Position numbers and translations under genes: made by a program. This document shows positions 31,701 through 63,984 of a stretch of DNA of 64,000 bases, piece after piece. Below the pieces are notes generated by a model. That model searched no databases. It saw nothing but the letters and a program-made list of their open reading frames with translations, and had not been told where the DNA came from. Source of the stretch: Clavibacter zhangzhiyongii (lineage in GTDB: Bacteria; Actinomycetota; Actinomycetes; Actinomycetales; Microbacteriaceae). The first letter of the stretch is position 1, and each line of letters opens with the position of its first letter. The stretch covers positions 2,790,001-2,854,000 of the forward strand of contig NZ_CP061274.1 of NCBI RefSeq assembly GCF_014775655.1, given 5' to 3'.

Positions 31701-32765
31701 TCAGTCGCGCGGCTCGCCCGTGAGGGGACGGATCACGCGGTGGCCGTCGAGGGAGCGGGCCGCCTCGAGGACGTGGGCCGGCGTGATCGCGAGAAGCGCC
31801 GGATCCGGGATCGCGGAGAAGGTGTCGCCGAGGCGCTGCGACGCGTCGGTCAGCACGATGTGCGGGCCGGACGCGGGCGGGCCCCACTCCTCGGGCGGGG
31901 CCGGGCCGAAGATCACGACCGACGGGATGCCGTAGGCGCTCGCGAGGTGGGCGGCGCCCGTGTCGGCGGAGATCACGAGGTCGGCGGCCGCGATGACGCC
32001 CGCGAAGGCGTCGAGGGCCAGCTCGCCCGCGAGCACCGTCTCCGTGGGCATGCCGGCGAGGGCGGCGACCTCGAGGGCGCGCTCGCGCTCCTTGTCGCTG
32101 CCGGTGAAGACGACCGTGCGGCCCTCGTCGGCGAGCGCGCGGGCGACCTCGGCGAAGCGGTCGACGGGCCACTGGCGGGATCCGTAGGCGGCGCCCACGT
32201 GGATCACGACGGCGTGCTCGGCGACGGGCGGCTCGGCGGGCACCAGGATGCCGACGTCGTCCGGGTCCGCGGGCATGCCGTGCCAGGAGACGAGCCGGGC
32301 CCAGCGGTAGCGCTCGAGGACGTGGTCCTCCCACGCGGGGCCGTCGGCGGCGGGCATGCCGTCGAGCTCGGGCGCCGCGTGGCCGAGGGTGCGGTGCGCG
32401 CGCAGCTCGTGGAGGAGCGTGCGGCTCTCGATGCCGGCGCCGTGCAGGTTGATCGCGAGGTCGACGGTTCCGGGCTCGCGCGCGATGGGGTGGTCGAAGC
32501 CCTGCTGCGGGAGGTGCACGTCGACCATGCCGAGGAGTTCCACGACGGGGGCGAGCCAGCCGGTGGTGGCGAGCAGGATCCGCGACCCCGGGTGCGCGCG
32601 GCGGATGGCGCGGAGCGCGGGGACGGCCACGAGGATGTCGCCGAGCTTGATGGCGCGGAGGACGAGGATCTCGGCGGGGCTGTCGAGGCTCGCGGCGCCG
32701 TCGGTGCTCGTGGGAGCGGGGCGGGCGTCGTCGGGGAGGGCGGCGCGATCGCCGGGGGTATGCAT
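31701..32765 (-). CDS. Glycosyltransferase family 9 (heptosyltransferase-like)
   Basis: The 354-residue protein has a GT-B fold of family 9. It has an early strand ILVLRAIKLGDILVAVPALRA, the acceptor-side helices, and the donor-binding half with HVGAAYGSRQWP and the typical ISADTGAAHLASAYGIPSV motif. Family 9 enzymes usually move ADP-heptose. Such substrates fit the heptose genes at 38-44 kb, although this gene stands alone. There is no signal or membrane segment; it likely works at the inner face of the membrane. Confidence 0.88.
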   Translation of the reverse strand: MHTPGDRAALPDDARPAPTSTDGAASLDSPAEILVLRAIKLGDILVAVPALRAIRRAHPGSRILLATTGWLAPVVELLGMVDVHLPQQGFDHPIAREPGTVDLAINLHGAGIESRTLLHELRAHRTLGHAAPELDGMPAADGPAWEDHVLERYRWARLVSWHGMPADPDDVGILVPAEPPVAEHAVVIHVGAAYGSRQWPVDRFAEVARALADEGRTVVFTGSDKERERALEVAALAGMPTETVLAGELALDAFAGVIAAADLVISADTGAAHLASAYGIPSVVIFGPAPPEEWGPPASGPHIVLTDASQRLGDTFSAIPDPALLAITPAHVLEAARSLDGHRVIRPLTGEPRD

Positions 32766-38409: not shown

Positions 38410-40023
38410 ATGCGCTCGCCCGGGATCGACCTCCAGGCCGTCCTGTTCGACCGGGACGGGACGCTCGTCGTCGACGTGCCGTACAACGGCGACCCGGCCC
38501 TCGTCACGCTCATGCCCGGCGCCCGCGAGGCCGTCGACGCCGTGCGCGCCGCGGGCCTGCGCGTCGGCATGGTGACCAACCAGTCCGGCATCGCGCGCGG
38601 CCTCATCACCCGCGATCAGGCCGACGCCGTCAACGCGCGCGTGCAGGAGCTGCTCGGCGCGTTCGACCTCGTGCTGCTGTGCCCGCACGGATCCGACGAC
38701 GGCTGCGACTGCCGGAAGCCCGCCCCCGGCATGGTGCTCGAGGCCTGCCGGACGTGGGGCATCGCGCCGTCGACCGTCGCGGTCGTGGGCGACATCGCCG
38801 CCGACATGGGCGCCGCCCGGAACGCGGGCGCGCGCGGCGTGCTCGTGCCGACGCCCGTCACGCGCGAGGAGGAGGTGGCCGAGGCGGAGCTCGTGGCCCC
38901 GACGGTCCTCGACGCGGTGCACCTCCTCATCCACGACCCCGCGCCCCGCCGCGTGCTCGTCGTGCGGCTCGACTCCGTGGGCGACGTGCTGATCTCCGGC
39001 CCCGCGGTGCGCGCCGTCGCCGCCGACCCGCGCGTCGAGGTCCACCTGCTCTGCGGCCCGCGCGGCGCGTCCGGCGGTCGGCTGCTGCCGGGCGTCCACG
39101 CGGTGCACGTGTGGGACTCGCCGTGGATCTCCTCCCCCGCGCCCGCCGCCGACGCCGCGTCCGTCGACGCCCTGCACGCGATCCTCACCGAGGTCGCGCC
39201 CGACGAGGCCGTCATCCTCACGTCCTTCCACCAGTCGCCGCTCCCGCTCGCGCTGCTGCTGCGGCTGGCGGGCGTGCGGCGGATCACCGGCGCGAGCGTC
39301 GACTACGCCGGCTCCCTCCTCGACGTGCGCCTGAAGCCCGGCGAGGACCTCGACGAGGACCAGCCCGAGCCCGAGCGCGCCCTCGCGATCGCCGCCGCGG
39401 CCGGGCACGCGCTGCCCGCCGACGACGACGGCCGGCTCGCCGTCCGGGAGGCCGCGCTGCCGTCCGACGTGGAGGCGCTCCTCCCCGACGGCCCGTTCGC
39501 GCTCGTGCACCCGGGAGCCGCGGTCGGCGCGCGCTCCTACCCGGCCGACCAGCACCGGGACGCCGTCGCGCTCCTCGTGGAGCGCGGGATCCCCGTGGTC
39601 GTCACCGGCGGACCCGACGAGCGGGACCTCACGGCGCACGTCGCCGGATCCGCCGCCCTCGACCTCGGCGGCCGCACCGACCTCGCCGGCCTCGGCGCGC
39701 TCATGCGCCGCGCGGCCGTGCTCGTGAGCGGCAACACCGGGCCCGCGCACCTCGCCGCCGCGACCGACCTCCCCGTCGTCAGCCTGTTCTCGCCCGTCGT
39801 GCCGCCCATCCGCTGGGCGCCGTACCGCGTGCCGGTGATCCTGCTGGGCGACCAGGACGCGCCCTGCAAGCTGAGCCGCGCCCGCGACTGCCCGATCCCC
39901 GGCCACCCGTGCCTCGCCGGCGTCTCCCCCGCGGAGGTCGCCGACGCGGTCGAGCGCCTGCTCGCGACCACGGGCGGCACCGGCGGCACGGCGTCGCGAC
40001 CGTCCTCGGAGGTGCCCGCATGA
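38410..40023 (+). CDS. GmhB-like heptose bisphosphate phosphatase fused to a GT9 glycosyltransferase
   Basis: The 537-residue fusion starts with a HAD domain (about 8-170): catalytic Asp14 and Asp16 in LFDRDGT, VTNQSGIARG, and a zinc site Cys91, His93, Cys99, Cys101 in the CPHGSDDGCDCRKPAPGM stretch, a hallmark of heptose 1,7-bisphosphate phosphatases (GmhB). From about residue 180 a family 9 GT-B domain begins with RVLVVRLDSVGDVLISGPAV and ends with SGNTGPAHLAAATDLPVV. One protein would thus make heptose-1-phosphate and transfer activated heptose. It opens a run of four genes with 4-nt overlaps. Confidence 0.88.
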   Translation: MRSPGIDLQAVLFDRDGTLVVDVPYNGDPALVTLMPGAREAVDAVRAAGLRVGMVTNQSGIARGLITRDQADAVNARVQELLGAFDLVLLCPHGSDDGCDCRKPAPGMVLEACRTWGIAPSTVAVVGDIAADMGAARNAGARGVLVPTPVTREEEVAEAELVAPTVLDAVHLLIHDPAPRRVLVVRLDSVGDVLISGPAVRAVAADPRVEVHLLCGPRGASGGRLLPGVHAVHVWDSPWISSPAPAADAASVDALHAILTEVAPDEAVILTSFHQSPLPLALLLRLAGVRRITGASVDYAGSLLDVRLKPGEDLDEDQPEPERALAIAAAAGHALPADDDGRLAVREAALPSDVEALLPDGPFALVHPGAAVGARSYPADQHRDAVALLVERGIPVVVTGGPDERDLTAHVAGSAALDLGGRTDLAGLGALMRRAAVLVSGNTGPAHLAAATDLPVVSLFSPVVPPIRWAPYRVPVILLGDQDAPCKLSRARDCPIPGHPCLAGVSPAEVADAVERLLATTGGTGGTASRPSSEVPA

Positions 40024-41072
40024 GGATCCTGATGTGGCACGTCCACGGCGGCTGGACCGACTCGTTCGTCCTCGGCTCGCACGAGATCCTCTTCCCGACG
40101 ACGCCCGCGCGCGACGCGTGGGGCCTCGGCCGCGGCGGCCGCGCGTGGCCCGCGAGCGCCCGCGAGGTGGATCCGTCGTCCCTGCACGACGCCGACGTCG
40201 ACCTCGTGCTCCTCCAGCGCGTCGCCGAGATCGAGGAGGCGGAGCGCCTGCTCGGCCGACGCCTCGGATCCGACGTGCCGGCCGTCTTCCTCGAGCACAA
40301 CACCCCGCGCGGCGCCCCGACCGAGACCGTGCACCCGCTCGCCGACCGCACCGACATCCCCGTGATCCACGTCACGCGCTTCAACGCGCTCATGTGGGAC
40401 ACCGGATCCGCGCCCACCACGGTCGTCGAGCACGGCGTCCCCGACCCCGGCGCGCTGTACACGGGCGAGGTCGCCTCCTTCGGCGCGGTGATCAACGAGC
40501 CCGTGCGCCGCGGCCGCATCACCGGCACGGACCTGCTGCCCGCGTTCGCCGACGTCGCGCCCGTCGAGGTGTTCGGCATGGGCACCGACCTGCTGCCGGG
40601 CGCGTTCCCCGAGCTCGGCGAGCGCCTCGTGCCGCGCGGCGACCTGCCGACCGCGCGCATGCACCCGGAGCTCGCGCGGCTGCGTGCCTACATCCACCCG
40701 CACCGCTGGACCTCGCTCGGCCTGTCGCTGCTCGAGGCGATGCACATGGCCATGCCGGTGCTCGTGCTCGACGCGACCGAGGCGTCGCGTGCGGTGCCGC
40801 CGGACGCGGGCGCCGTCTCGTCCGACCCGGCCGAGCTCGTGCGCGTCGCCCGGCTGCTGCTCGCGGATCCCGACGAGGCCACCCGGCGCGGCCGCGTCGC
40901 CCGCGAGGCCGCGCTCGCCCGCTACTCGCTCGGCCGGTTCCTCGGCGACATGGACGCCGCGCTGCACGACGCCGTGGATGCCGCGGCCGCGCGCCGCTCC
41001 CGCCGCGCCCCCGCCGGATCCGGCCCCAGGACTTCCCCGCACCACCCGCTCGACGAGAGGACGACACGATGA
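40020..41072 (+). CDS. Glycosyltransferase, GT-B family (GT4-like)
   Basis: The 350-residue protein begins MRILMWHVHGGWTDSF and contains a divergent first half with FLEHNTPRGAPTETVH and a donor-binding half with HPHRWTSLGLSLLEAMHMAMPVLVLDATEASRA, where the usual EX7E motif of GT4 enzymes is partly kept. No membrane helix is visible. It overlaps the preceding and following genes by 4 nt (ATGA), so it is part of the heptose glycan operon. Sugar donor and acceptor are unknown. Confidence 0.82.
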   Translation: MRILMWHVHGGWTDSFVLGSHEILFPTTPARDAWGLGRGGRAWPASAREVDPSSLHDADVDLVLLQRVAEIEEAERLLGRRLGSDVPAVFLEHNTPRGAPTETVHPLADRTDIPVIHVTRFNALMWDTGSAPTTVVEHGVPDPGALYTGEVASFGAVINEPVRRGRITGTDLLPAFADVAPVEVFGMGTDLLPGAFPELGERLVPRGDLPTARMHPELARLRAYIHPHRWTSLGLSLLEAMHMAMPVLVLDATEASRAVPPDAGAVSSDPAELVRVARLLLADPDEATRRGRVAREAALARYSLGRFLGDMDAALHDAVDAAAARRSRRAPAGSGPRTSPHHPLDERTTR

Positions 41073-43015
41073 GGATCGCGATGATCTCCGAGCACGCCAG
41101 CCCGCTGGCGACCCTCGGCGGGGTCGATGCCGGCGGCCAGAACGTGCACGTCGCGGCGCTGTCCGCGGCGCTCGCGGACGAGGGCCACACGGTCACCGTC
41201 TACACGCGCCGCGACGACGCCTCGCTGCCCGCCCGCGTCGCCTTCGCGCCCGGCGTGGAGGTCGTGCACCTCGACGCGGGACCCGCGCGCGCCGTCCCCA
41301 AGGACGACCTCCTCCCGCACATGGGCGAGCTCGCCGACGGCCTCCTCGCCGACTGGCGCACCAACCGGCCGGATGTGGTGCACAGCCACTTCTGGATGTC
41401 CGGCATCGCGGCCCTCGACGCCGCCGCCCGCCTCGCCTCCTCGCCGGTGGGCGCCGCCGCGGCCCCGCCCGTGCTGCACACCTTCCACGCGCTCGGCTCC
41501 GTGAAGCGCCGCCACCTCGGCGCCGAGGACACGAGCCCCGCCGAGCGCACCGAGCTCGAGCCCGGCGTCGGCCGCCGCGCGGACGCGGTCATCGCGACCT
41601 GCTCCGACGAGGCCGCCGAGCTCGTGCGCACGGGCGTCGACGCGGCCCGCATCACGGTGATCCCGTGCGGCGTCGACGTCGAGCACTTCACCCCGCGGTC
41701 GTACGCGGACGCCGACGCGGATGCCCCGATGCGCGTCATGGTCGTCGGCCGCCTGGTGCCCCGCAAGGGCGTCGACCTCGGGATCGAGGCCCTCGGGATC
41801 CTCGCCGGCCGCGGCCGGCGCGACGTCGAGCTCGTGATCGTCGGCGGATCCGGCGACGCCGCGAGCGCCACCGAGGAGACCGAGGCCCGACGCCTGATGG
41901 ACGCCGCCCGCGCCGCCGGGGTCGCCGACCGCGTGCGCCTGCACGGCCGCGTCTCCCAGGCCGACATGCCCGCCGTGATGCGCACCGCCGACGTCGTCGT
42001 GTGCGCGCCCTGGTACGAGCCGTTCGGCATCGTGCCCCTGGAGGCGATGGCCTCGGGCGTGCCCGTCGTCGCGTCCGCCGTGGGCGGCCTCACCGACAGC
42101 GTGGTCGACGGCGTGACGGGGATCCTCGTGCCGCCGCGCGACCCCGCCGCCATCGCCGACGCCCTCGGGGAGCTCCTCGCGGATCCCGCCCGCCGCCGCC
42201 GCCTCGGCCGCGCCGGCCGCGACCGCATGGAGCAGGGCTACTCCTGGGCGACCGTCGCCGCCCGCACCGCCGACGCCTACCGGTCCGCGATCCAGGACGC
42301 CGCCCTCGACGACCTCCCCGCCGACCCGACCGTGGTCGACGCGCACCTCGACGCGCTCGGCCCGGTGCTCGACGCCCTCCGCACGCACGCGCCGCGCCTC
42401 ACCGCGTGGGGCAGCGAGATGGCCGACCGGATGAGCCACGGCGCGCGCCTGCTCGCGGCCGGCAACGGCGGATCCGCGGCCGAGGCCCAGCACCTCACGA
42501 GCGAGCTGGTGGGCCGGTTCGACGGCGACCGGCGACCGTTCTCCGCGATCGCGCTGCACTCCGAGTCGTCCGCGGTCACCGCGATCGGCAACGACTACGG
42601 CTTCGACGAGGTCTTCGCGCGCCAGGTGCACGCGCATGCGCGCTCCGGCGACATCGTCGTGCTCCTCTCCACCAGCGGCCGGAGCGTCAACCTCCTCAAG
42701 GCCGCAGCCGCCGCGCGCGCCGCCGGCGCCACCACCTGGGCGATGACGGGCCCCGGCCCGAACCCGCTCGTGGAGGCGTGCGACGAGTCGCTCGCGCTCG
42801 ACGGGCCGTCGGCCAACGTGCAGGAGGCGCAGCTCGTCGCCGTGCACGCGATCTGCCGCGCGTTCGAGAGCCGCCTGAAGGCGAACGACCGCGCCGCCGC
42901 CCTCGCCTCGGCCACCGCGGACGCGGCTCCCGCGTCGCCGGCATCCGTCGCGTCCGTCCCCGTGACGGTCACGCCCGCGTCCACCACGGCCGCTCCCGCG
43001 GAGGTGCCGGCATGA
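41069..43015 (+). CDS. GT4 glycosyltransferase fused to a GmhA-type SIS isomerase domain
   Basis: The 648-residue fusion starts with a complete GT4 transferase (about 1-405): GGVDAGGQNVHVAALS, VVHSHFWMSG, and YEPFGIVPLEAMASGVPVVA with the EX7E motif. From about 430 a SIS domain follows, whose AAGNGGSAAEAQHLTSELVGRF segment (around 463-484, GNGGSA at 465-470) is the signature of GmhA, the sedoheptulose 7-phosphate isomerase. LLSTSGRSVNLLKA is the phosphate loop. So the first step of heptose synthesis is on the same chain as a transferase. An Ala/Pro/Val-rich tail ends the protein. Confidence 0.88.
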   Translation: MRIAMISEHASPLATLGGVDAGGQNVHVAALSAALADEGHTVTVYTRRDDASLPARVAFAPGVEVVHLDAGPARAVPKDDLLPHMGELADGLLADWRTNRPDVVHSHFWMSGIAALDAAARLASSPVGAAAAPPVLHTFHALGSVKRRHLGAEDTSPAERTELEPGVGRRADAVIATCSDEAAELVRTGVDAARITVIPCGVDVEHFTPRSYADADADAPMRVMVVGRLVPRKGVDLGIEALGILAGRGRRDVELVIVGGSGDAASATEETEARRLMDAARAAGVADRVRLHGRVSQADMPAVMRTADVVVCAPWYEPFGIVPLEAMASGVPVVASAVGGLTDSVVDGVTGILVPPRDPAAIADALGELLADPARRRRLGRAGRDRMEQGYSWATVAARTADAYRSAIQDAALDDLPADPTVVDAHLDALGPVLDALRTHAPRLTAWGSEMADRMSHGARLLAAGNGGSAAEAQHLTSELVGRFDGDRRPFSAIALHSESSAVTAIGNDYGFDEVFARQVHAHARSGDIVVLLSTSGRSVNLLKAAAAARAAGATTWAMTGPGPNPLVEACDESLALDGPSANVQEAQLVAVHAICRAFESRLKANDRAAALASATADAAPASPASVASVPVTVTPASTTAAPAEVPA

Positions 43016-44391
43016 GGATCGTCGTGGTCGGCGACGTGCTCCTCGACGTCGACATGACGGGCGCCGCGCACCGCCTGAGCCCGGATGCGCCCGTCCCCGT
43101 CATCGAGGTCGAGGAGTCGCTGCCGCGCGCCGGCGGCGCGGGCCTCGTCGCGACGATGCTCGCGCGGGACGGCCACGACGTCCGCCTCGTCACCGTGCTC
43201 TCCGACGACCGGCACGCGGCGACCCTCCGCGCGTGCCTCGACCGGATCGACGTGGTCGCCGGCCCGTCCCGCGCGCCCACGCCCGTGAAGACCCGCGTCC
43301 GCGCCGACGGCCACGCCATCGCCCGCATCGACGAGGGCTGCGCGCCGCCGCCCACGCCGGAGGCGACCGACGCGATGCTCGACGCGATCGCCACCGCCGA
43401 CGCCATCGTGGTCGCCGACTACGGCCGCGGCGTCACGCGCGACCCCCGCGTCCGCGCCGCTCTCGACGCGCGCGCCGCGGTCGTGCCGCTGGTCTGGGAT
43501 CCGCACCCCGCGGGCGAGCCGCCCGTCCCGAACACCGCGCTCGCCACCCCGAACCTCGCCGAGGCGCGCGCGTTCTCCGGGATCGCCGGGCGCGACGTGT
43601 CCGCCGCCGCCGACGCCGCCCGCCTCCTGCAGGAGAGGTGGGGCGTGGGCACGGTCGCCGTCACCATGAGCGAGCGCGGCGCGCTGCTCGTCTCGGCGCC
43701 GTCGGCCGGGGGATCCCCGTCCATGCCCGTCATCGTCCCCGCCCCGCTCGTCGCCACCGGTGACCCGTGCGGCGCGGGCGACCGCCTGGCCGCCACCGCC
43801 CTCGCGGCCCTCGCCGGCGGATCCGCGGTGGACGACGCCATGCGCGACGCCGTCGCCTCCGCCGCCGAGTACGTGGACGCGGGCGGCGTCGCCACGCTCA
43901 CGGGCCCGCCGGCCGCCCGCCCCATCGGCGGCCACGCGGCGAGCGCCCTCCAGGTCGTGCGCGCGACCCGCGCCGCCGGCGGCACCGTCGTCGCGACCGG
44001 CGGCTGCTTCGACCTCGTGCACGCCGGCCACGCCCGCACGCTGGCCGCGGCCCGCGCCCTCGGCGACTGCCTCGTCGTCCTCCTCAACTCGGACGACTCC
44101 GTCCGCCGCCTCAAGGGACCCGAGCGGCCGATCATGACCGAGGAGGACCGCGTGGACCTCCTCATGTCGCTCGGCGTCGTGGACGCGGTCGTGCTCTTCT
44201 CCGAGGACACCCCCGAGGAGGCGCTCCGCTCCATCAAGCCCGACCTCTGGGTCAAGGGCGGCGACTACCGCGCCGAGGACCTCCCCGAGTCGGCGGTCAT
44301 CGCCGAGTGGGGCGGCCAGGCCGTGACCGTGCCGTACCACCCCGGCCGCTCGACAACGAAGCTCGCGGGCGCGCTCGCCCGCGTCGGCTGA
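43012..44391 (+). CDS. HldE-like bifunctional heptose 7-phosphate kinase/heptose 1-phosphate adenylyltransferase (copy 1)
   Basis: The 459-residue protein has a PfkB-type kinase domain (1-310: VVGDVLLDVDM, ATPNLAEARAF, and GAGD at 254-257 with the catalytic Asp). The C-terminal nucleotidyltransferase domain (320-459) shows GGCFDLVHAGH with HAGH at 337-340, NSDDSVRRLKGPERP and WVKGGDY. Domain order and length match HldE, which phosphorylates heptose 7-phosphate at C1 and later adds AMP. The kinase lacks the usual N-terminal lead of about 15 residues. It overlaps the GT4-SIS gene by 4 nt. Confidence 0.9.
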   Translation: MRIVVVGDVLLDVDMTGAAHRLSPDAPVPVIEVEESLPRAGGAGLVATMLARDGHDVRLVTVLSDDRHAATLRACLDRIDVVAGPSRAPTPVKTRVRADGHAIARIDEGCAPPPTPEATDAMLDAIATADAIVVADYGRGVTRDPRVRAALDARAAVVPLVWDPHPAGEPPVPNTALATPNLAEARAFSGIAGRDVSAAADAARLLQERWGVGTVAVTMSERGALLVSAPSAGGSPSMPVIVPAPLVATGDPCGAGDRLAATALAALAGGSAVDDAMRDAVASAAEYVDAGGVATLTGPPAARPIGGHAASALQVVRATRAAGGTVVATGGCFDLVHAGHARTLAAARALGDCLVVLLNSDDSVRRLKGPERPIMTEEDRVDLLMSLGVVDAVVLFSEDTPEEALRSIKPDLWVKGGDYRAEDLPESAVIAEWGGQAVTVPYHPGRSTTKLAGALARVG

Positions 44392-44463
44392 GCCCCTGAT
44401 CCGCACGTCTCCCCCGCACCTCCGCGCCCACCGGGCGCGATCCGCATCACGGAAGGAACACCC

Positions 44464-45168
44464 ATGACCGACTCCCCCCGCCCCAGCACCGGCCGCGTCC
44501 TCATCACCGGAGGCGCGTCCGGGCTCGGCGCCGCGGTCGCGCAGGCGGTCCTCGCGGCCGGCGGCGAGCCCATCGTGCTCGACCTCGACACCTCGAGCGT
44601 CACCGGCATGGAGGCCCACCGCATCGACGTCTCCGACACCCGCGCCACCGAGGCGCTCGTCACCGAGATCGCCCAGGCGCACGGCGGGCTGGACGCCGTC
44701 GTCACCGCCGCGGGCATCGACCGCTGCGGCCGCCTCGTCGACGTCGCCCCCACCGAGTGGGAGAAGGTCATCGGCGTGAACCTGATGGGCACGGTCGCCG
44801 TCGTCCGCGCGGCGCTGCCGTTCCTCACCGAGTCGCACGGCCGCGTCGTCACCGTCGCGTCGTCGCTCGCGATCAAGGCCGTCTCCGACGCGACCGCCTA
44901 CTGCGCGTCGAAGTTCGGCGTGCTCGGCTTCACCCGGGCCCTCGCCGCCGAGACGAAGGGCGAGGTCGGCGTGACCACGCTCATCCCCTCCGGCATGAAG
45001 ACCCACTTCTTCGACGACCGCGACCCGAAGTACAAGCCCGGCTCCGACGCGAACCTCAACGACCCGGCCGCCGTCGCCGACAGCGTGATGTTCATCCTCG
45101 GCCAGCCGCGCGGCTGCGAGATCCGCGAGCTCGTCATCACCCACGAGCTCGAGGACAGCTGGCCGTGA
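44464..45168 (+). CDS. Short-chain dehydrogenase/reductase
   Basis: The 234-residue classical SDR has TGGASGLGAAV (cofactor loop), a VTAAGIDRCG strand, the catalytic Ser in VASSLAI and the YCASKFG active-site Tyr/Lys. It is too short and of the wrong type to be HldD, the extended SDR that epimerises ADP-heptose. It follows the HldE-like gene after a 72-nt gap with its own GGAAGGA site, and likely belongs to the same operon, where it could oxidise or reduce a sugar intermediate. A terminator follows. Confidence 0.88.
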   Translation: MTDSPRPSTGRVLITGGASGLGAAVAQAVLAAGGEPIVLDLDTSSVTGMEAHRIDVSDTRATEALVTEIAQAHGGLDAVVTAAGIDRCGRLVDVAPTEWEKVIGVNLMGTVAVVRAALPFLTESHGRVVTVASSLAIKAVSDATAYCASKFGVLGFTRALAAETKGEVGVTTLIPSGMKTHFFDDRDPKYKPGSDANLNDPAAVADSVMFILGQPRGCEIRELVITHELEDSWP

Positions 45169-47064: not shown

Positions 47065-48078
47065 ATGCAGCACCACCCCCTCCCCTTCCGCCCCGCGACC
47101 GCCCTCCTCCTGGGTCTCGCCCTCACCGCCGGGGTCCTCACGGCAGCATCCCCCGCCAGCGCCGCGACCCGCGGCACCGCACCCGCCGTCGGCGCCGCGT
47201 CCGCCGCCCCGACCGTCTCCGACGCCCGGCTCCGCTTCGGCGTCGCGACGCCCGGCGGCCCGACCGCCGGCGGCGAGCTCGACCAGGTCGCCGCGCAGGT
47301 CGGCGAGAGCCCGAGCATCGTGCTCTCCTACGCCGACTTCACGCAGGCGCCGCCCATCGCGGCCCTCGACGCCGTCGCCGCCCGGGGTGCCGAGAGCCTC
47401 CTCACCTGGGAGCCCTGGCGCGCCGGAGGCGGCCGGGACCAGCCGGGCTTCTCGAACGCGAGCATCGTCGCGGGCGACCACGACGCGCACCTCCGCGCGT
47501 GGGGATCCCAGCTGGCCGCGTGGGGAGGTCCGGTCTCCCTCCGCTACGCGCACGAGATGAACGGCGACTGGTACCCCTGGGCCGAGGGCGTCAACGGCAA
47601 CGCGGCGGGCTCGTACGCCGCGGCCTGGCAGCACGTGCACGACGTCGTCGTGGCCGAGGGCGCCACCAACGTGCGCTGGGTGTGGACGCCGAACGTGCCC
47701 TACGCGGGATCCACCGCGCTCGCGGGCCTCTACCCCGGCGACGCGTACGTCGACGTCGTCGGGCTCGACGGCTACAACTGGGGCACCGGCGTCGCGGGCT
47801 TCGCCTGGGTGTCGCCCGCCGACCTGTTCGGCCCCGGCATCGAGCGCCTCCGCGCCATCGCGCCCGGCAAGCCCATCGTCATCGCGGAGACGGCGTCGTC
47901 GGAGATCGGCGGATCGAAGGCCGCCTGGGATCGCGACCTCGTCGCGTTCCTGCAGGCCCAGCCCGACGTCGCGGCCTTCGTCTGGTTCGACATGGACAAG
48001 GAGGCGGACTGGCGCATCGGCAGCTCCGAGTCGTCCGCGACCGCCTTCCGCGACGCGCTCGCCGCCCGCCGCGTCTGA
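47065..48078 (+). CDS. Secreted GH26-like glycoside hydrolase (beta-mannanase type), copy 1
   Basis: The 337-residue protein has a signal peptide (cleavage after about SPASA) and a single GH26-type barrel: LLTWEPW, the acid/base Glu in RYAHEMNGDWYPW, VGLDGYNWG, and the nucleophile Glu in IVIAETASSE. GH26 enzymes cut mannans or mixed-linkage glucans; the exact substrate is unknown. It stands directly upstream of a paralogue with the same catalytic segments. A plant-polysaccharide target would fit a plant-associated host, which is an inference. Confidence 0.87.
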   Translation: MQHHPLPFRPATALLLGLALTAGVLTAASPASAATRGTAPAVGAASAAPTVSDARLRFGVATPGGPTAGGELDQVAAQVGESPSIVLSYADFTQAPPIAALDAVAARGAESLLTWEPWRAGGGRDQPGFSNASIVAGDHDAHLRAWGSQLAAWGGPVSLRYAHEMNGDWYPWAEGVNGNAAGSYAAAWQHVHDVVVAEGATNVRWVWTPNVPYAGSTALAGLYPGDAYVDVVGLDGYNWGTGVAGFAWVSPADLFGPGIERLRAIAPGKPIVIAETASSEIGGSKAAWDRDLVAFLQAQPDVAAFVWFDMDKEADWRIGSSESSATAFRDALAARRV

Positions 48079-48186
48079 TCCGCCGCCCCGGCCGTCGGAT
48101 CCCGTCGCTCAGCGGACATCCGATGGACGGCGGGGGCCGAAGAACATACGCTCGCATGGATCCATCGGGGGAAGGACCATCTCGCC

Positions 48187-49575
48187 ATGCCCGCTCGTCG
48201 CCGTCTGAAGTGCGCCGTCGTCACCGCCGTCGCCCCCGCTGTCGTCGTCACGGCCACCGTCCTCGCCGCACCGGCGACCGTGACCCAGGCCGCCGCCGCG
48301 CAGGCCGTGCCCGCGGCCCCCGCCGCGATCGTCCTCTCGGTCGCCGCCGGCCCCGTCGGCACCGCCGTCACGGTGACCGGCACCGGCTTCCCCGCGAGGA
48401 AGGCCGCGGTCGTCACGGCCGGAACCACCGCGAAGCGCATCACGACCACGGCCACCGGCCGTCTCACCACCGCGATCCCGATCGCCCGCACGGCGCTGTC
48501 GACCATCCGGATCACCGCGACGTCCGGCACGCGCACGGCCGCCGCGTCGTTCACCGTCACCCCGGCCCGCAGCGCGCGCGAGACGCGGACGACCCCGACG
48601 CCCGCCCCCGCCCCGAAGCCGGTCCCGAAGCCCGCGCCGGCACCGCGGCCGACCCCGACACCCGCGCCCACCGTGTCCGCGCCGAGCGCCCCGGCGGCCC
48701 CCTCCGCCCCGGCCATCAGCTCGGCCCGCCTGCGCCTCGGCCTCTCCACCCCCGGCGGCCCCACGGCGAACGGCGAGCTCGATGCCGCCGCCGCGACGCT
48801 CGGCGAGAGCCCGTCCATCGTGATGAGCCACGTCGACTTCACGCATCCGGCGCCCGTGGCGGGCCTCGCGAGCGTCGCCGCGCGCGGCGCCGACAGCCTC
48901 CTCACCTGGGAGCCGTGGATCGGCGGCGCGGGCGTCGACCAGCCGGCCTACGCGAACGCACGCATCCTCGCGGGCGACCAGGACGCCTACATCCGCTCCT
49001 GGGGCGCCGACCTCGCGAGGTACGGCGGGCCCGTCTACCTCAGATACGGCCACGAGATGAACGGGAACTGGTACCCGTGGTCGGACGGCGTCAACGGCAA
49101 CGCGCCCGGCTCCTACGTGGCCGCGTGGAAGCACGTGCACGACCTCGTCGTCGCCGAGGGCGCCACCAACGTCAAGTGGGTGTGGAGCCCGAACGTGCCG
49201 TACCCGGGATCCACCGACCTCGCCTCCCTCTACCCCGGCAGCGACCAGGTCGACGTGGTCGCGCTCGACGGCTACAACTGGGGGACCGCGCCCGGCCAGA
49301 CGTGGACCGCGCCCGCCGCGCTCTTCGGCCCCGGCATCGACCGCCTCCGCGCCATCGCGCCCGGCAAGCCCCTCGTCATCGGCGAGGTCGCGTCGAGCGA
49401 GGCCGGCGGATCCAAGTCCGCGTGGAACCGGGACCTCGTCTCCTACCTGCAGGCCCAGCCCGACGTGCTCGGCTTCGTGTGGTTCGACTTCCGGAAGGAG
49501 GAGGACTGGCGGATCGACAGCTCGGCCACCTCCGCCGCCGCCCTCCGCGACGCGCTCGCGCTCCGGCGCCGCTGA
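48187..49575 (+). CDS. Secreted GH26-like glycoside hydrolase with N-terminal Ig-like domain, copy 2
   Basis: The 462-residue paralogue adds an N-terminal signal and an Ig/IPT-like domain (about 45-125, with GPVGTAVTVTGTGFP). A Pro/Thr/Ala/Lys linker (about 130-170) precedes a GH26-type barrel with LLTWEPW, YGHEMNGNWYPW, VALDGYNWG and VIGEVASSE. It is very similar over the whole catalytic part to the upstream copy, so a tandem duplication followed by domain gain or loss is likely. The ATG follows AAGGA. Confidence 0.87.
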   Translation: MPARRRLKCAVVTAVAPAVVVTATVLAAPATVTQAAAAQAVPAAPAAIVLSVAAGPVGTAVTVTGTGFPARKAAVVTAGTTAKRITTTATGRLTTAIPIARTALSTIRITATSGTRTAAASFTVTPARSARETRTTPTPAPAPKPVPKPAPAPRPTPTPAPTVSAPSAPAAPSAPAISSARLRLGLSTPGGPTANGELDAAAATLGESPSIVMSHVDFTHPAPVAGLASVAARGADSLLTWEPWIGGAGVDQPAYANARILAGDQDAYIRSWGADLARYGGPVYLRYGHEMNGNWYPWSDGVNGNAPGSYVAAWKHVHDLVVAEGATNVKWVWSPNVPYPGSTDLASLYPGSDQVDVVALDGYNWGTAPGQTWTAPAALFGPGIDRLRAIAPGKPLVIGEVASSEAGGSKSAWNRDLVSYLQAQPDVLGFVWFDFRKEEDWRIDSSATSAAALRDALALRRR

Positions 49576-51116: not shown

Positions 51117-52289
51117 TCAGGCCGTCACGCGCTCCCCGAGCGACGCGCGCCGCAGCTGCTCCACGTCCGCGTGCACGTCGTCGACCCGCACGTCGGCCAC
51201 GTACGACGGGTCGTGCTCGCAGCGCTCCGCGGTCCAGCCGACCTGGGTCACGTCGACGCCGCAGACGGGGCAGCGCGTGGTCCAGCCCATGTGGATCCGG
51301 TGCCGTGTGCGCCCGAACGCCGCCGCGTTGATCACGTTGCCGAACCAGAACACGCCGACCGTGCGCGCGCCGACGGCCTGCGCGAGGTGGCGCGGTCCGC
51401 TGTCGTTGCCGAGCACCACGTCGGCGTGGGTGAAGAGGCCGGCCAGCTCGCCGAGGGTGAGGGCGTCGGCGAGGGAGGTGATCCGCTCGGCCTGCTCCGC
51501 CGGCAGGCCCTGGCGGCCGAGCGCGACGATGCGGTCGGCGTCGGCCGCGTCCGTCGCGTCGCCCACCACGACCACCTGCGCGTCGTCGGCGGCGGCCCGG
51601 CGCGCGACGTCGGCGAACGACCCGACCGGCCAGCGGCGGCGCACGTCCGTGGCGCCCGGGTGGATGACGACGAGCCCGCCGGGCGCGCCCGTCACGTGCT
51701 CCGCCGCTGCCGACCGCTCGGCGTCGGTGACCTGGACGACCGGCTCGAGGTCGGCGATCGGCGCGCCCGCGAGCCCCGCGACCTCGAGCCCGCGCAGCAC
51801 CTCGTGCTGGTAGTAGACGTACGGGATTACGCGCTCGAGCCGCTCGGCGTCGTCGGTCGCGGTGCCCACGGTGTGCCGCGCGCCGAGCCGCAGCAGGAAC
51901 GGGTTGGAGTTGCGGCCGCCGCCGTGCACCTGCACGGCGAGGTCGAACCGGCGCTCGCGCATCCGGGCGGCGAACGCCTCGATCTCCTCGGGGTCGGGAT
52001 CCGTGCCCGGCACGTCCCGCACGCCGTGCGCGACCGGCAGCACCTCGATCTCCTCGGGCGCTCCCGGGCGGCCCTCCAGCAGCGCGCGGTGCAGCGGCGT
52101 GCCGAGCAGCGTGATCCGCGCGCCCGGGTACGCGGCCCGCAGCGCCGCGATGGCCGGCAGCGCGAAGATCAGGTCGCCGAGCCCGCCGCCGCGCAGCACG
52201 GCGATGGAGCGGACGCGATGGAAGGTCTCATGGAGCGGGGCGACGACGGGCACGGGCGGGCCTCCTGGTGGGGCGGTCGGGTCCCCCAC
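51117..52289 (-). CDS. Glycosyltransferase family 9 protein
   Basis: The 390-residue GT-B protein has the GT9 start SIAVLRGGGLGDLIFALPAIAALRA, the donor half VVIHPGATDVRRRWP, and LGNDSGPRHLAQAVGARTVGVFWFG. Near the C-terminus a CPVCGVDV...ERCEHD segment may bind zinc, an unusual addition. Candidates for the donor are ADP-heptoses made by the two HldE-like loci. It is convergent with the DUF1023-like gene, with only 7 nt between the stops. Confidence 0.88.
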   Translation of the reverse strand: MGDPTAPPGGPPVPVVAPLHETFHRVRSIAVLRGGGLGDLIFALPAIAALRAAYPGARITLLGTPLHRALLEGRPGAPEEIEVLPVAHGVRDVPGTDPDPEEIEAFAARMRERRFDLAVQVHGGGRNSNPFLLRLGARHTVGTATDDAERLERVIPYVYYQHEVLRGLEVAGLAGAPIADLEPVVQVTDAERSAAAEHVTGAPGGLVVIHPGATDVRRRWPVGSFADVARRAAADDAQVVVVGDATDAADADRIVALGRQGLPAEQAERITSLADALTLGELAGLFTHADVVLGNDSGPRHLAQAVGARTVGVFWFGNVINAAAFGRTRHRIHMGWTTRCPVCGVDVTQVGWTAERCEHDPSYVADVRVDDVHADVEQLRRASLGERVTA

Positions 52290-53387: not shown

Positions 53388-53405
53388 GGTTGCGAGCATC
53401 ACAGA

Positions 53406-59939: not shown

Positions 59940-61442
59940 GTGACCACGGACACCGCACTCGACATCGACGGCCTGATCGACCCCGAGGAGGTCGAGGCCG
60001 GGCCCGGCACGCTGCGGATCACGGATCCGCGCGACGGCTCGCCCGTGGGCGACATCGACGCGTCGAGCCCCGAGGAGGTCGACGCCGCAGTGCGCCGCTC
60101 GGTCGCCGCGTCCGCCGCCTGGGCTGCGACGCCGCCCGCCCAGCGCGGCCAGGCCGTGCGCCGCGCCGCCCACGCGCTCGCGGAGCACGCGGAGGAGCTG
60201 GCGGAGCTCAACGTGCGCGAGACCGGCAAGCCGCACGGCGACGCGCTCGGCGGCGTCGGCGCGGGCGTCGACACGCTCCTGCAGTACTCCGAGCTCGGGC
60301 CCGTCCACCGCGGGAAGGCCCTCCTCGGCACGCTCCCCAACGTCGACTTCTCGGTGCCGCGCCCGCGCGGCGTCACGGTCGCGCTCACGCCGTGGAACGA
60401 TCCGGTGGCGGTCGCCGCCGGCATCATCGGCGCGGCGCTCGTGATGGGGAACACCGTGGTCCACAAGCCGAGCGAGCGCTGCCCGCACACGGGCGAGCTG
60501 CTCGGGCGGATCCTCGCGGAGGCCCTGCCCGACGGCGTGCTCGTCTCCGTGGTCGGCGGCGGCGACGTCGGCGACCGGCTCGTCGCGCACGAGGACACGC
60601 AGGTGGTCGCGCACGTCGGATCCACCGCCGCGGGCGAGGCCATCGCGCGCCGCGCCGCCGGCACCCCCACCCACGTCATCCGCGAGAACGGCGGCAACGA
60701 CCCGCTCCTCGTCGACGCGGGCGTCGATCCCGCGTGGGCCGCCGCGCAGGCCGCCCTCGGGTCCTTCGCGAACGCCGGCCAGATCTGCACCTCGGTCGAG
60801 CGGATCTACGTCCACCGCGACATCGCCGACCGCTTCACCGCCGCGCTCGTCGCCGAGGCCGAGCGCTGGAACTCCTCCGGCGACCTCGGTCCGCTGGTCG
60901 ACGAGCGCATGCGCTCCGCCGTGCACGAGCAGGTGTCGGAGGCGCTCACGGAGGGCGCCCGCGCGCTCGTCGGCGGCCACGTCCCCGACGGCCCCGGGTC
61001 CCGCTACCCCGCCACCGTGCTCGTCGACTGCACCGACGACATGACCGTGATGACGCACGAGACGTTCGGCCCGGTCGCGGCCGTGCGGGTGGTCGAGGAC
61101 TTCGACGAGGCCCTCGAGCGCGCGTCCGCCGACCGCTACGGGCTCGCCGCGAGCGTGCTCACGGCGTCGATGGAGCACGCGCAGCGCGCCGCCGCCGAGC
61201 TGCCCGTCGGCACGATCAAGGTCAACGGCGTCTTCGGCGGCGCACCCGGCGGCGCCGCGCAGCCCCGCGGCCGCAGCGGATCCGGCTTCGGCTACGGCCC
61301 CGAGCTGCTCGACGAGATGAGCACCACGACGGTCGTGCACCTCGGGCTGCCCGTGCTCGACGCGGGCGATGCGCCGGCCGTCACCACCCCGGCCGAGGAC
61401 GCGTCCGGCTCCGTGAGCACCGACGCGGGCGACGCACGATGA
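59940..61442 (+). CDS. Aldehyde dehydrogenase family protein
   Basis: The 500-residue protein has the ALDH fold: TPWNDPVAVAAGIIGAALVMGNTVVHKPSE in the cofactor part, catalytic Glu in VIRENGGNDP (a variant of the usual ELGGK motif), and catalytic Cys in FANAGQICTSVERIYV. The last 25 residues are Ala/Thr/Asp-rich. Its GTG follows GAGGAGA. The stop overlaps the next ATG by 4 nt, so it is co-translated with the second HldE-like gene. It may oxidise an aldehyde of a sugar pathway; the substrate is unknown. Confidence 0.88.
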   Translation: MTTDTALDIDGLIDPEEVEAGPGTLRITDPRDGSPVGDIDASSPEEVDAAVRRSVAASAAWAATPPAQRGQAVRRAAHALAEHAEELAELNVRETGKPHGDALGGVGAGVDTLLQYSELGPVHRGKALLGTLPNVDFSVPRPRGVTVALTPWNDPVAVAAGIIGAALVMGNTVVHKPSERCPHTGELLGRILAEALPDGVLVSVVGGGDVGDRLVAHEDTQVVAHVGSTAAGEAIARRAAGTPTHVIRENGGNDPLLVDAGVDPAWAAAQAALGSFANAGQICTSVERIYVHRDIADRFTAALVAEAERWNSSGDLGPLVDERMRSAVHEQVSEALTEGARALVGGHVPDGPGSRYPATVLVDCTDDMTVMTHETFGPVAAVRVVEDFDEALERASADRYGLAASVLTASMEHAQRAAAELPVGTIKVNGVFGGAPGGAAQPRGRSGSGFGYGPELLDEMSTTTVVHLGLPVLDAGDAPAVTTPAEDASGSVSTDAGDAR

Positions 61443-63022
61443 CGAGCGAGCTGCGCGGGATCATCGGCCTCCTCGCGGAGCGCCGGCCCACCGTCACGGT
61501 CATCGGCGACGTCATCCTCGACGAGTGGTGGCGCGGCCACAGCGACCGGATGACCCGCGAGGCGCCGGCGCCCGTCGTCGACGTGACCGAGCGGATCCAG
61601 TCGCTCGGCGGCGCCGCGAACACGGCCGTGAACCTCGCGAGCCTCGGCGGCACCGTGCGGATGGTCGGCCTCGTCGGCCAGGACGCCGCGGGCGACCGCG
61701 TGCGCGACCTGCTCGTGGCCGCGGGCGTCGACGTCACCGGCCTCGTGCACTCGCCGCGCCTGCGCACCACCACCAAGACGCGCATCGTGGGCGACGACCA
61801 GGTGATCGTGCGGGTCGACGACGTGCACCGCGGATCCGTGCACCGCGACGACGCGCGCGCCCTCGCCCGCGCCGCGCTCGAGGCGACGGCGGGCGTCGAC
61901 GCCGAGATCGTGTCCGACTACGGCACCGGCACGCTGCACGGCGTGGTGCTCGAGTCGCTCGCCGCCCGGTCGAGCCGCCCCGGACTGACCGTCGTGGACG
62001 CGCACGACCCCGCCATGTGGGCGCCGCTCCGCCCCGACCTCATCACGCCGAACGCGGGCGAGGCCGGCCGCCTCGTCGACCGTGCGCTCGGCCGCGACGA
62101 GGACCGCGCCGCCGTCATCGCGGGGCTCGCCGACGCCGTGCTCGCCGCATCCGGATCCGCGACCGCCGTCGTCACCCTCGACCGCGACGGCACCGTGGTG
62201 CTCGGCGCGGGCGAGCCGTACCGCACGCGCGCGCACCCGGTGCCCGAGAAGCAGGCGTCCGGCGCGGGTGACACCTTCGTCGCCGCCCTCACGCTCGCGC
62301 GCGCCGTCGGCCTCCCGCTCCAGGTGAGCGCCGACTTCGCGCAGGCCGCGGCCGACGTGGTCGTGCGCCTCCCCGGCACCTCCGTGTGCTCCGCCGCGAC
62401 CCTCGCCGACCACCTCGGCGAGACGCGCTCGCGCACCGTCAGCCAGGGCGAGCTCGTCGAGCTCGTGGCCGCCGAGCGCGCCGCGGGCCGCCGGATCGTC
62501 TTCACCAACGGCTGCTTCGACGTGCTGCACCGCGGCCACACCACCTACCTCCGCCAGGCCAAGCGCCTCGGCGACGTGCTCGTGGTGGCGCTCAACAGCG
62601 ACGACTCCGTGCGGCGGCTGAAGGGATCCGACCGGCCGGTGAACACCGCGGAGGACCGCGCGGGCGTGCTCGCCGAGCTGTCCTGCGTCGACGTGATCAC
62701 CGTGTTCGACACCGACACCCCCATCCCGCTCATCGAGGCGGTGCAGCCCGACGTGTACGCGAAGGGCGGCGACTACACGCCCGAGATGCTCGACGAGACC
62801 GCGGTGGTGCGCGCGTACGGCGGCGAGGTGTCGATCCTCGGCTACGTGCCGTCGCAGTCGACGAGCTCGATGGTGGACCGGATCCGCGCCTCCGCTCCCG
62901 AGCCCGGCTTCACCCGTCCCACGGGCACGGCGACGTCCGCGCCCGTCTCCGGCCCCGAGGCCGACGCCCCCGCGTCCGCGTCCGAGACGGATCCGGAGCC
63001 CGCGCCGGGAGCACCCCGGTGA
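61439..63022 (+). CDS. HldE-like bifunctional heptose kinase/adenylyltransferase (copy 2)
   Basis: The 527-residue protein has the full HldE layout. The PfkB-type kinase has VIGDVILDEWWRG, SLGGAANTAVNLASLGG and GAGD at 275-278. The nucleotidyltransferase domain has TNGCFDVLHRGH (HRGH at 364-367), NSDDSVRRLKGSDRP and YAKGGDYTPEML. It ends in an Ala/Pro/Glu-rich tail absent from copy 1. It is closer to proteobacterial HldE in its N-terminal motifs than copy 1. It overlaps the ALDH and the following GT2 gene by 4 nt each. Confidence 0.92.
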   Translation: MTSELRGIIGLLAERRPTVTVIGDVILDEWWRGHSDRMTREAPAPVVDVTERIQSLGGAANTAVNLASLGGTVRMVGLVGQDAAGDRVRDLLVAAGVDVTGLVHSPRLRTTTKTRIVGDDQVIVRVDDVHRGSVHRDDARALARAALEATAGVDAEIVSDYGTGTLHGVVLESLAARSSRPGLTVVDAHDPAMWAPLRPDLITPNAGEAGRLVDRALGRDEDRAAVIAGLADAVLAASGSATAVVTLDRDGTVVLGAGEPYRTRAHPVPEKQASGAGDTFVAALTLARAVGLPLQVSADFAQAAADVVVRLPGTSVCSAATLADHLGETRSRTVSQGELVELVAAERAAGRRIVFTNGCFDVLHRGHTTYLRQAKRLGDVLVVALNSDDSVRRLKGSDRPVNTAEDRAGVLAELSCVDVITVFDTDTPIPLIEAVQPDVYAKGGDYTPEMLDETAVVRAYGGEVSILGYVPSQSTSSMVDRIRASAPEPGFTRPTGTATSAPVSGPEADAPASASETDPEPAPGAPR

Positions 63023-63984
63023 CCTCGGGCCGGAGCCGCCGCTGGTCCGGCGAGTGGGGCGCGGGCCGGGCGCCGGACGCGCCCGCGATCGACGTGCTGA
63101 TCCCGAGCGCCGGCCGCACGGCCGAGCTCGCGGTGACCCTCTCGGGCCTCGCCGGGCAGGACGACCCGCCGTTCCGCGTCGTCGTGAGCGACCAGTCCGA
63201 CGGCTTCCGCGCCGACGCCGAGCCGAGCGTGCAAGGCATGGTGCGCGTGCTCCGGGCGCAGGGCCGCGAGGTCGAGGTGGTCTCGCACCTGCCGCGCCGC
63301 GGGATCGCCGAGCACCGGGCGTCGCTCCTCGCGCGCGCCACCGCCGACGCCGTGCTCTTCCTCGACGACGACGTGTGGCTCGAGCCCGGCATGCTGCGCC
63401 GGATGCACGACGCCCTCGAGACCCTCGACATCGGCTTCGTCGGCGCCGCCGTGCAGGGCCTCAGCTACCTCGAGGACCGCCGCGCCCACGAGGCCACGGC
63501 CTTCACGCCGTGGGGCGACGACGTCGAACCGGAGCGCATCCGCCGCGGCACGCCGGGCTTCGACCGCTGGCCGCTGCACAACGCCGCGAACCTCGCGCAC
63601 ATCGCCGCCGACCTCGACCTCGAGGTCGACACCTGGCTCGCCTACCGGATCGCGTGGGTCGGCGGCTGCGTGCTCTACCGCCGCCGCGCGCTCGTGGAGA
63701 CGGGCGGCTTCGACTTCTGGGAGCGCCTGCCCGAGCGCCACTCGGGCGAGGACGTCGCCGCGCAGTGGCGCGTGATGGAGCGCTTCGGCGGCGCGGGCAT
63801 CGTGCCGAGCGGCGCCGTGCACCTCGAGGCGCCGACCACGATCCCGGTCCGCGAGGTCGACGCGTTCGACGTGGTGTTCGCCGAGGATCCGCCGGATCCC
63901 CAGGAAGCACCCCTAGGCGACGCGCCGCCGGAGGAGTCGACTCGATCCGTGGACGCCGCGACCCGTCGCGCCGACCGCTCCTGA
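63019..63984 (+). CDS. Glycosyltransferase family 2
   Basis: The 321-residue GT-A enzyme has IDVLIPSAGRTAELAVTLSGL, the DxD-type metal motif in VLFLDDDVWLEPG, and the acceptor part with GGCVLYRRRALVETGGFDFWERLPERHSGEDV. No membrane helix is visible. The GTG start overlaps the HldE-like stop by 4 nt. It ends 16 nt before the window's edge; further pathway genes probably lie beyond. Confidence 0.88.
   Translation: MTSGRSRRWSGEWGAGRAPDAPAIDVLIPSAGRTAELAVTLSGLAGQDDPPFRVVVSDQSDGFRADAEPSVQGMVRVLRAQGREVEVVSHLPRRGIAEHRASLLARATADAVLFLDDDVWLEPGMLRRMHDALETLDIGFVGAAVQGLSYLEDRRAHEATAFTPWGDDVEPERIRRGTPGFDRWPLHNAANLAHIAADLDLEVDTWLAYRIAWVGGCVLYRRRALVETGGFDFWERLPERHSGEDVAAQWRVMERFGGAGIVPSGAVHLEAPTTIPVREVDAFDVVFAEDPPDPQEAPLGDAPPEESTRSVDAATRRADRS

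What the first reader, a model, noticed from the sequence alone, without database searches (positions are those of the whole stretch)
38410..45168. Heptose activation and transfer operon in a probable Gram-positive actinobacterium
The window shows four 4-nt-overlapping genes that carry every domain expected to turn sedoheptulose 7-phosphate into nucleotide-activated heptose: a GmhA-type SIS domain, HldE-like kinase/adenylyltransferase and a GmhB-like phosphatase with its zinc site. They are mixed with three transferase domains. This pathway is best known for LPS core heptose, but nothing here suggests an outer membrane. Inference: the product decorates a surface glycan, glycolipid or secondary metabolite. 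ADP-heptoses are also known immune elicitors, which would matter for a host-associated bacterium.
Basis: partly seen in the sequence, partly recalled or inferred. Interest (0 to 1): 0.78.

Follow-up and report, generated by a model that had tools for sequence, protein, structure and literature searches.

The report
Heptose glycan gene cluster in Clavibacter
A Clavibacter genome carries genes that look able to make and transfer an activated seven-carbon sugar, and they match the core of a stress-controlled Streptomyces operon that the papers seen here describe only as a predicted cell wall glycan operon.

Summary
Four genes overlapping by 4 nt (38410-44391) encode GmhB+GT9, GT4, GT4+GmhA and an HldE-type kinase/nucleotidyltransferase; an SDR follows after 72 nt. 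GmhA zinc ligands, GmhB Asp and Cys/His motifs and HldE catalytic motifs are kept. The genus is Clavibacter; the genes are found in 18 of 18 genus genomes, in a few only in pieces. The operon is the middle of a larger set: many other Microbacteriaceae have one compact 12-gene cluster with two more GT9s, an ALDH, a second HldE (HldE2) and a GT2. Clavibacter keeps order and strands, spread over 31.7-64.0 kb, with two fusions. The core GmhB-GT9-GT4-GT4-GmhA-HldE recurs in many actinobacterial genera and matches cwgD-cwgI of the sigmaE-controlled, vancomycin-induced cwg 'cell wall glycan' operon of Streptomyces coelicolor, located here by its published promoter. So this is a variant of a known but functionally unassigned operon, most likely making a nucleotide-activated D,D-heptose for an envelope glycan. 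HldE1 forms its own clade and usually carries the arginine reported to allow CDP-/UDP-heptose synthesis, so 'ADP-heptose' is not assured. Product, acceptor, nucleotide and export are unproven; the immune-elicitor idea has no support here.

The parts
31701..32765 (-). GT9a, GT9-family heptosyltransferase-like; in compact clusters of other genera it lies divergently next to GmhB; 44% identical to the cwgJ-position gene of L215
38410..38925 (+). GmhB-like HAD-IIIA phosphatase domain (FDRDGT; CPH..CDCRKP), fused to GT9b (boundary approximate)
   Evidence: cwgD-position homologue, 56%
38926..40023 (+). GT9b domain (nearest solved relatives by sequence: heptosyltransferase I, 2gt1/2h1f/6dfe)
   Evidence: cwgE-position homologue, 53%
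40020..41072 (+). GT4w: divergent but complete GT4 (GT-B) glycosyltransferase; used as marker gene of the cluster
   Evidence: cwgF-position homologue, 52%
41069..42298 (+). GT4m: GT4 domain, nearest solved relatives Tll1590 and MshA by sequence, fused to GmhA (boundary approximate)
   Evidence: cwgG-position homologue, 55%
42299..43015 (+). GmhA-like sedoheptulose-7-phosphate isomerase (SIS) domain with all four zinc ligands (boundary approximate)
   Evidence: cwgH-position homologue, 59%
43012..44391 (+). HldE1: PfkB kinase + nucleotidyltransferase of the cwgI-position clade (GGAGL, GAGDR, TGGCFD, GRSTT)
   Evidence: 47% identical to the cwgI-position gene
44464..45168 (+). Short-chain dehydrogenase (SDR); follows HldE1 in 74 of 79 named loci with the cluster, in 11 of 21 class loci
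51117..52253 (-). GT9c, third GT9-family transferase (a longer GTG start at 52289 is also possible)
59940..61442 (+). Aldehyde dehydrogenase (ALDH), first gene of the HldE2 module
61439..63022 (+). HldE2: second HldE-type kinase/nucleotidyltransferase with GGAAN/GAGDT/TNGCFD motifs, 38% identical to HldE1
63019..63984 (+). GT2-family glycosyltransferase, last gene of the HldE2 module

Best explanation
It is the Clavibacter form of a heptose pathway that recurs in many Actinomycetes and whose best-studied relative is the cwgD-cwgJ core of the S. coelicolor cwg operon. [quoted passage not shown] the HldE1 kinase (and probably HldE2) phosphorylates C1; GmhB removes the 7-phosphate; the nucleotidyltransferase domains of HldE1 and HldE2 make NDP-heptose, expected to stay in the D,D form because no HldD epimerase above cut-off was found; GT9 transferases add heptose, and the GT4/GT2 enzymes other sugars, to a cell-envelope glycan or glycolipid. 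Shown: domains, conserved motifs, conserved gene order, the match to cwg. Inferred: substrates, nucleotide, linkage, acceptor and location.
For: All pathway domains are present. GmhA zinc ligands (H61, E65, Q175, H183 in N. gonorrhoeae, PMC5387315 passages; Q172 and H180 in E. coli) are kept in 113-114 of 114 actinobacterial rows, GmhB DxD in 97 of 99 and CxH...CxC in 99 of 99, the rest being gaps. In 18 family genomes that I chose, a GmhA-type gene is in 11 of 11 with HldE and 0 of 7 without (caveat in the Against line). The six core genes stand in exact order in 15 of 31 family loci, 63 of 79 named loci and 13 of 21 class loci by my gene calls. The promoter printed for cwg (PMC6767563 passages) occurs in 1 of 295 genomes of one genus, 147 bases before the first of 12 collinear genes, the distance the paper gives; seven of these match the window's domains at 44-59% identity, and a polysaccharide deacetylase lies divergent to them, as the paper lists for sco6178. 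HldE1 is the only strong HldE nucleotidyltransferase in 13 of 20 chosen genomes. GT9b's nearest solved relatives are heptosyltransferase I. No HldD above cut-off.
Against: GmhA, GmhB and HldE1 fall below NCBIfam equivalog cut-offs; the HldE1 nucleotidyltransferase is borderline (179.4, 182.3, cut-off 181.5). HldE1 has GGAGL in place of GGAAN in 101 of 111 sequences. None of the 12 families of the compact cluster is a flippase, polymerase or exporter, so export is unexplained. A sigmaE-like promoter is not enriched upstream (5 of 65 vs 36 of 672 control genes) and was not found within 300 bp in the window. cwgA, B, C and K have no blastp match and cwgL only a weak one; no carbamoyltransferase was found in the genome. 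In G025, G084 and G140, which have HldE2 but no HldE1 hit, the only GmhA-like gene lies outside the cluster; the one inspected (G025) sits between a ROK and a GH38 gene, so the 11/11 vs 0/7 is weaker than it looks and HldE2 may not depend on this GmhA.
Confidence: 0.72

Rival explanations
1. Two activated sugars: HldE1 with GmhA/GmhB makes CDP- or UDP-heptose (or uses several nucleotides), while HldE2 with ALDH and GT2 makes ADP-heptose or another NDP-sugar; the transferases use different donors.
For: HldE1 has Arg before STT in 95 of 99 readable sequences (111 in all); the window has YHPGRSTT in HldE1 and YVPSQSTS in HldE2. That Arg is reported to give CTP/UTP use (Tang et al. 2024 as told in PMC11461863). 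All 33 HldE1 rows form one group, 100/100. HldE1 was called without HldE2 in 18 of 21 class loci (20-kb stretches), and HldE2 without HldE1 in several family genomes.
Against: HldE2 also has the Arg in 20 of 79 readable sequences (90 in all). The same source says the Arg is not strictly needed for nucleotide promiscuity. In L073 HldE1 is a bare kinase with GAGDR, so HldE2 holds the only nucleotidyltransferase of that locus, which suggests a shared heptose 1-phosphate. The window motif begins with Y, not F/L.
Confidence: 0.3
2. A secondary-metabolite pathway, as for septacidin in Streptomyces fimbriatus, rather than an envelope glycan.
For: NDP-heptose is used for septacidin (stated in PMC11461863); no exporter or polymerase is among the 12 cluster families.
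Against: HldE1 in 18 of 18 Clavibacter genomes; the GT4w marker in 98 of 394 class genomes, with the same order in 13 of 21 class loci looked at; the S. coelicolor relative is described as a sigmaE-controlled, vancomycin-induced operon predicted to make a cell wall glycan. The septacidin cluster itself was not compared.
Confidence: 0.1
3. The HldE/GmhA/GmhB homologues have been recruited for a different sugar phosphate (not heptose).
For: Below equivalog cut-offs; GGAAN changed to GGAGL in the HldE1 kinase.
Against: All successive steps plus GT9 transferases are kept together; GmhA and GmhB catalytic or metal residues kept; GAGD and HxGH kept in HldE1.
Confidence: 0.15

Closest known systems
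S. coelicolor cwg operon (sco6179-6190; [quoted passage not shown] 2002, not read; seen as cited in PMC6767563 and PMC5839063 passages)
   Same: Same order GmhB-GT9-GT4-GT4-GmhA-HldE at the cwgD-I places, plus a GT9a homologue at the cwgJ place; 44-59% identity.
   Different: No match to the cwgA epimerase, cwgB carbamoyltransferase or cwgC/K GT2, a weak one to cwgL; GT9a divergent and 5.6 kb away; GmhB+GT9 and GT4+GmhA fused; added SDR, GT9c and an ALDH-HldE2-GT2 module; no sigmaE-like promoter found.
Gram-negative GmhA/HldE/GmhB ADP-L,D-heptose pathway with WaaC-type heptosyltransferases (LPS core)
   Same: Same four-step chemistry predicted; catalytic motifs kept; GT9 family.
   Different: No HldD above cut-off; HldE1 is a separate group from E. 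coli HldE with altered kinase motif and an Arg in the nucleotide motif. That Clavibacter lacks LPS is recalled.
NDP-heptose nucleotidyltransferases with the STTR5 arginine (Tang et al. 2024, not read; as told in PMC11461863)
   Same: HldE1 carries the Arg before STT.
   Different: The motif begins with Y or F and often has A in place of G; activity not tested.
Septacidin heptose pathway of Streptomyces fimbriatus (mentioned in PMC11461863)
   Same: NDP-heptose made by an actinomycete.
   Different: A secondary metabolite; its cluster was not compared here.

Membership tests
cwg-type heptose core (cwgD-cwgJ) | Collinear GmhB-GT9-GT4-GT4-GmhA-HldE | tested here: met
   (47-59% identity, same order, as domains of four genes)
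cwg-type heptose core (cwgD-cwgJ) | GT9 of the cwgJ kind | tested here: met
   GT9a 31701-32765, 44% identity, but divergent and 5.6 kb away
S. coelicolor 12-gene cwg operon as such | cwgA epimerase, cwgB carbamoyltransferase, cwgC/K/L GT2 | tested here: not met
   no blastp match to cwgA-C or K from the window's 12 domains; GT2 matches the cwgL-place gene at E 5e-5, 32% over 109 aa; no PF02543 in the genome
S. coelicolor 12-gene cwg operon as such | sigmaE-type promoter upstream | tested here: not met
   no AAC-N16-18-CGTC within 300 bp of 38410 or of GT9a; 5/65 vs 36/672 in named relatives
S. coelicolor 12-gene cwg operon as such | Induction by cell-wall antibiotics | not testable with these tools
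   needs expression data
GmhA | Zinc ligands H61, E65, Q175, H183 (N. gonorrhoeae numbering) | tested here: met
   window and 113-114 of 114 rows
GmhA | NCBIfam equivalog cut-off (TIGR00441, 209.45 bits) | tested here: not met
   132.3 bits
GmhB | HAD DxD and CxH...CxC (roles recalled) | tested here: met
   window; 97 of 99 and 99 of 99 rows
GmhB | NCBIfam equivalog cut-off (NF006506, 178 bits) | tested here: not met
   119.2 bits
HldE (HldE1) | Kinase + nucleotidyltransferase with GAGD and HxGH | tested here: met
HldE (HldE1) | GGAAN motif of the kinase (sugar-contact role of Asn recalled from ribokinase) | tested here: not met
   GGAGL in 101 of 111; GGAAN in 85 of 90 HldE2
HldE (HldE1) | NCBIfam cut-offs (NF008454 521 bits; TIGR02198 345 bits) | tested here: not met
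   269.7 and 138.5 bits
STTR5-type nucleotidyltransferase (HldE1) | Arg at fifth place of (F/L)XXGXSTT | tested here: inconclusive
   Arg present: YHPGRSTT in the window, R in 95 of 99 readable; but the first residue is Y, not F/L
STTR5-type nucleotidyltransferase (HldE1) | CTP/UTP use | not testable with these tools
   needs enzyme assay
ADP-L,D-heptose pathway | HldD 6-epimerase | tested here: not met
   best 98.4 bits vs cut-off 274.6

The most novel reading that the evidence does not exclude
Actinomycetes carry a widespread NDP-heptose pathway (the cwg core) whose HldE1 clade makes CDP- or UDP-heptose rather than ADP-heptose for an undescribed heptose-containing envelope glycan, and Micrococcales such as Clavibacter run a second, parallel HldE2 pool with its own transferases.
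Probability: 0.27. Interest if true: 0.75.

Novelty: new variant of a known kind. Interest (0 to 1): 0.5.

Why it matters
The cwg operon is a known target of the Streptomyces envelope stress response, and PMC6767563 and PMC5839063 still call its role in a cell wall glycan predicted or tentative. Tying its core to a heptose pathway that recurs with the same gene order in many actinobacterial genera gives a concrete chemical prediction, heptose in a Gram-positive envelope, that can be tested in harmless laboratory species, and points to the enzyme (HldE1) that decides the nucleotide. It also warns against annotating these genes as LPS synthesis.

Tried and rejected
Secondary-metabolite and LPS readings were considered; the conserved order and the cwg match favour an envelope glycan. 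A sigmaE-like promoter was sought and not found. The gmhA/HldE co-occurrence looked clean, but in G025, G084 and G140 the gmhA-like gene is outside the cluster; the three have neighbours of similar lengths, of which only G025's were identified, as ROK and GH38. 'HldE2 without HldE1' in L147 was a miss of my gene finder: tblastn shows both HldE1 domains there. Free-standing HldE1 kinases: L073 keeps GAGDR; L075 shows no GAGD by my pattern and G069's match holds a TGA, so only L073 is a sound case.

Paper searches, seen as listings only: heptose with Clavibacter (6 papers), with Arthrobacter (2), ADP-heptose with Actinobacteria (7), heptosyltransferase/Streptomyces/Gram-positive (20 of 97 listed), septacidin (12), ALPK1/HldE (20 of 24 listed), cell wall glycopolymer with heptose (4): no title listed is about this cluster. 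Passages were read in PMC5839063, PMC6767563, PMC13011467, PMC3902916, PMC5387315 and PMC5563000 (the last only notes a salt-induced 'ADP-heptose:LPS heptosyltransferase' in Frankia), and the first of two parts of PMC11461863. The library holds open-licence papers only; Hong et al. 2002 and Tang et al. 2024 were not read.

No GT9 enzyme is among the 50 structure rows for GT4w, which excludes nothing. Rows dropped: identical sequences were counted once and 12 HldE1 and 11 HldE2 had no readable STT motif; one of 80 named loci (L167, no cluster family called) was left out, and the two Clavibacter loci L082-L083 were not in the family count. Of the stretches fetched, L005 and L006 were given gene calls but not studied.
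Full report
Observation. The window is G000:C1:2790001-2854000 of a single-contig 3,098,336-base genome. The operon at 38410-44391 is as described: ORFs of 537, 350, 648 and 459 codons joined by three ATGA overlaps, then a 234-codon SDR after 72 nt. Pfam and NCBIfam give HAD-IIIA/GmhB + GT9, a weak GT4, GT4 + SIS/GmhA, and PfkB + nucleotidyltransferase of HldE type. Scores are below the equivalog cut-offs for GmhA, GmhB and the HldE kinase, so names are by similarity. The genus is Clavibacter: a contig of genus member G014 (503,716 bases) has the length of the Clavibacter sp. VKM Ac-2872 contig, with the operon at matching coordinates. The species of the window was not identified. HldE1 is found in 18 of 18 genus genomes, 14 as one full-length alignment and four in pieces; the two fusion proteins are nearly full-length single frames in 17 of 18.

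Larger cluster. A second HldE (38% identical) lies in the same window. Regions of related genomes, annotated with my own gene finder and blastp, show a compact cluster in many other Microbacteriaceae: GT9a(-), GmhB, GT9b, GT4w, GT4m, GmhA, HldE1, SDR, GT9c(-), ALDH, HldE2, GT2. Clavibacter keeps this order and these strands but spreads them over 31.7-64.0 kb, with GmhB+GT9b and GT4m+GmhA fused; between them lie other genes such as two GH26-like proteins, a LacI/ABC/GH35 set and a YhcG-type nuclease. In the family sample 41 of 249 genomes (22 of 85 genera) have an HldE hit at E <= 1e-20; at most six candidates per genome were scored, so this may be low.

Wider core. A profile of GT4w finds matches at E <= 1e-40 in 98 of 394 class genomes, 46 of 138 genera. 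The six-gene core is in exact order in 15 of 31 family loci (29 genomes), 63 of 79 named loci and 13 of 21 class loci by my calls; misses include small GmhB genes not called, loci cut at an end, and real rearrangements such as L196-L198. Both HldEs were called in 23 of 31, 62 of 79 and 1 of 21; one named miss, L147, is a calling error. So HldE2 with ALDH, GT9c and GT2 is mainly an addition in Micrococcales, and HldE1 belongs to the core: in 13 of 20 chosen genomes it is the only strong HldE nucleotidyltransferase (9 with one match, 4 with a second under 82 bits), while 7, the window's own among them, have two or more.

Link to cwg. PMC5839063 (passages) lists cwgD 'putative dehydratase', cwgE, G and J transferases, cwgH 'phosphoheptose isomerase' and cwgI 'bifunctional synthase/transferase'. 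PMC6767563 (passages) describes sco6179-6190 as a 12-gene operon, predicted to make a cell wall glycan, induced by vancomycin and partly sigmaE-dependent, and prints its promoter 147 bp from the start codon. That 29-base string occurs in 1 of 295 genomes of the genus of G391; 147 bases separate it from the first of 12 collinear genes: epimerase, carbamoyltransferase, GT2, GmhB, GT9b, GT4w, GT4m, GmhA, HldE1, GT9a, GT2, GT2, and a polysaccharide deacetylase is divergent, as the paper lists. The window's domains are 44-59% identical to the seven matching proteins.

Natural variants. In L073 (G193) HldE1 is a bare 329-residue kinase with GAGDR, the SDR overlaps it by 4 nt, and the only nucleotidyltransferase in the locus is HldE2's. 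This favours a shared heptose 1-phosphate. L075 looks similar but lacks a readable GAGD. Against a single tidy pathway, G025, G084 and G140 have HldE2 without an HldE1 hit, and their only GmhA-like gene is outside the cluster, in G025 between ROK and GH38 genes.

Verdict. The heptose reading is well founded by homology, gene order and motifs, and the system is a variant of a known, functionally unassigned operon. Nucleotide, glycan, export route and the roles of ALDH and SDR remain open. No HldD above cut-off was found, so D,D-heptose is expected. SigmaE-type control was not found here. Nothing in the sequence supports an immune-elicitor role.

Noticed in passing
window 15843-17824 (+): A low-GC stretch (51% in 16001-18000 against 63-78% in other 2-kb steps) holds an AbiLi-like AAA ATPase and an AbiLii/RloB-like partner: probably an acquired anti-phage defence pair.
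   Followed up: partly
window 58749-59789 (-): A YhcG/DUF1016 PDDEXK nuclease (PADLOC candidate PDC-S02) sits just before the ALDH-HldE2-GT2 module.
   Followed up: partly
window 47065-49575 (+): Two tandem GH26-like proteins lie between the two halves of the heptose cluster; relatives are in the Clavibacter loci L082 and L083 too.
   Followed up: no
window 52338-58705: A LacI regulator, ABC-transporter-like genes and a GH35 beta-galactosidase lie inside the split heptose cluster (the transporter genes were recognised by eye only).
   Followed up: no
L073 11220-12209 and L075 8092-8958: HldE1 reduced to a free-standing kinase domain in two other genera; the L075 copy has no readable GAGD motif.
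   Followed up: partly
L079 / L183 (G147:C1, about 411700-413710): An extra GmhB-GmhA-HldE set whose HldE groups with E. coli HldE rather than with either actinobacterial clade.
   Followed up: partly
G007:C1:2989165-2995014: One Clavibacter genome (92% complete) has split or partial frames in GmhB+GT9b, GT4m+GmhA and HldE1; sequencing errors and decay were not distinguished.
   Followed up: no
L184 (G025:C3): A GmhA-like SIS gene between a ROK-family gene and a GH38 alpha-mannosidase gene suggests a degradation operon, so gmhA hits alone do not prove heptose synthesis.
   Followed up: partly
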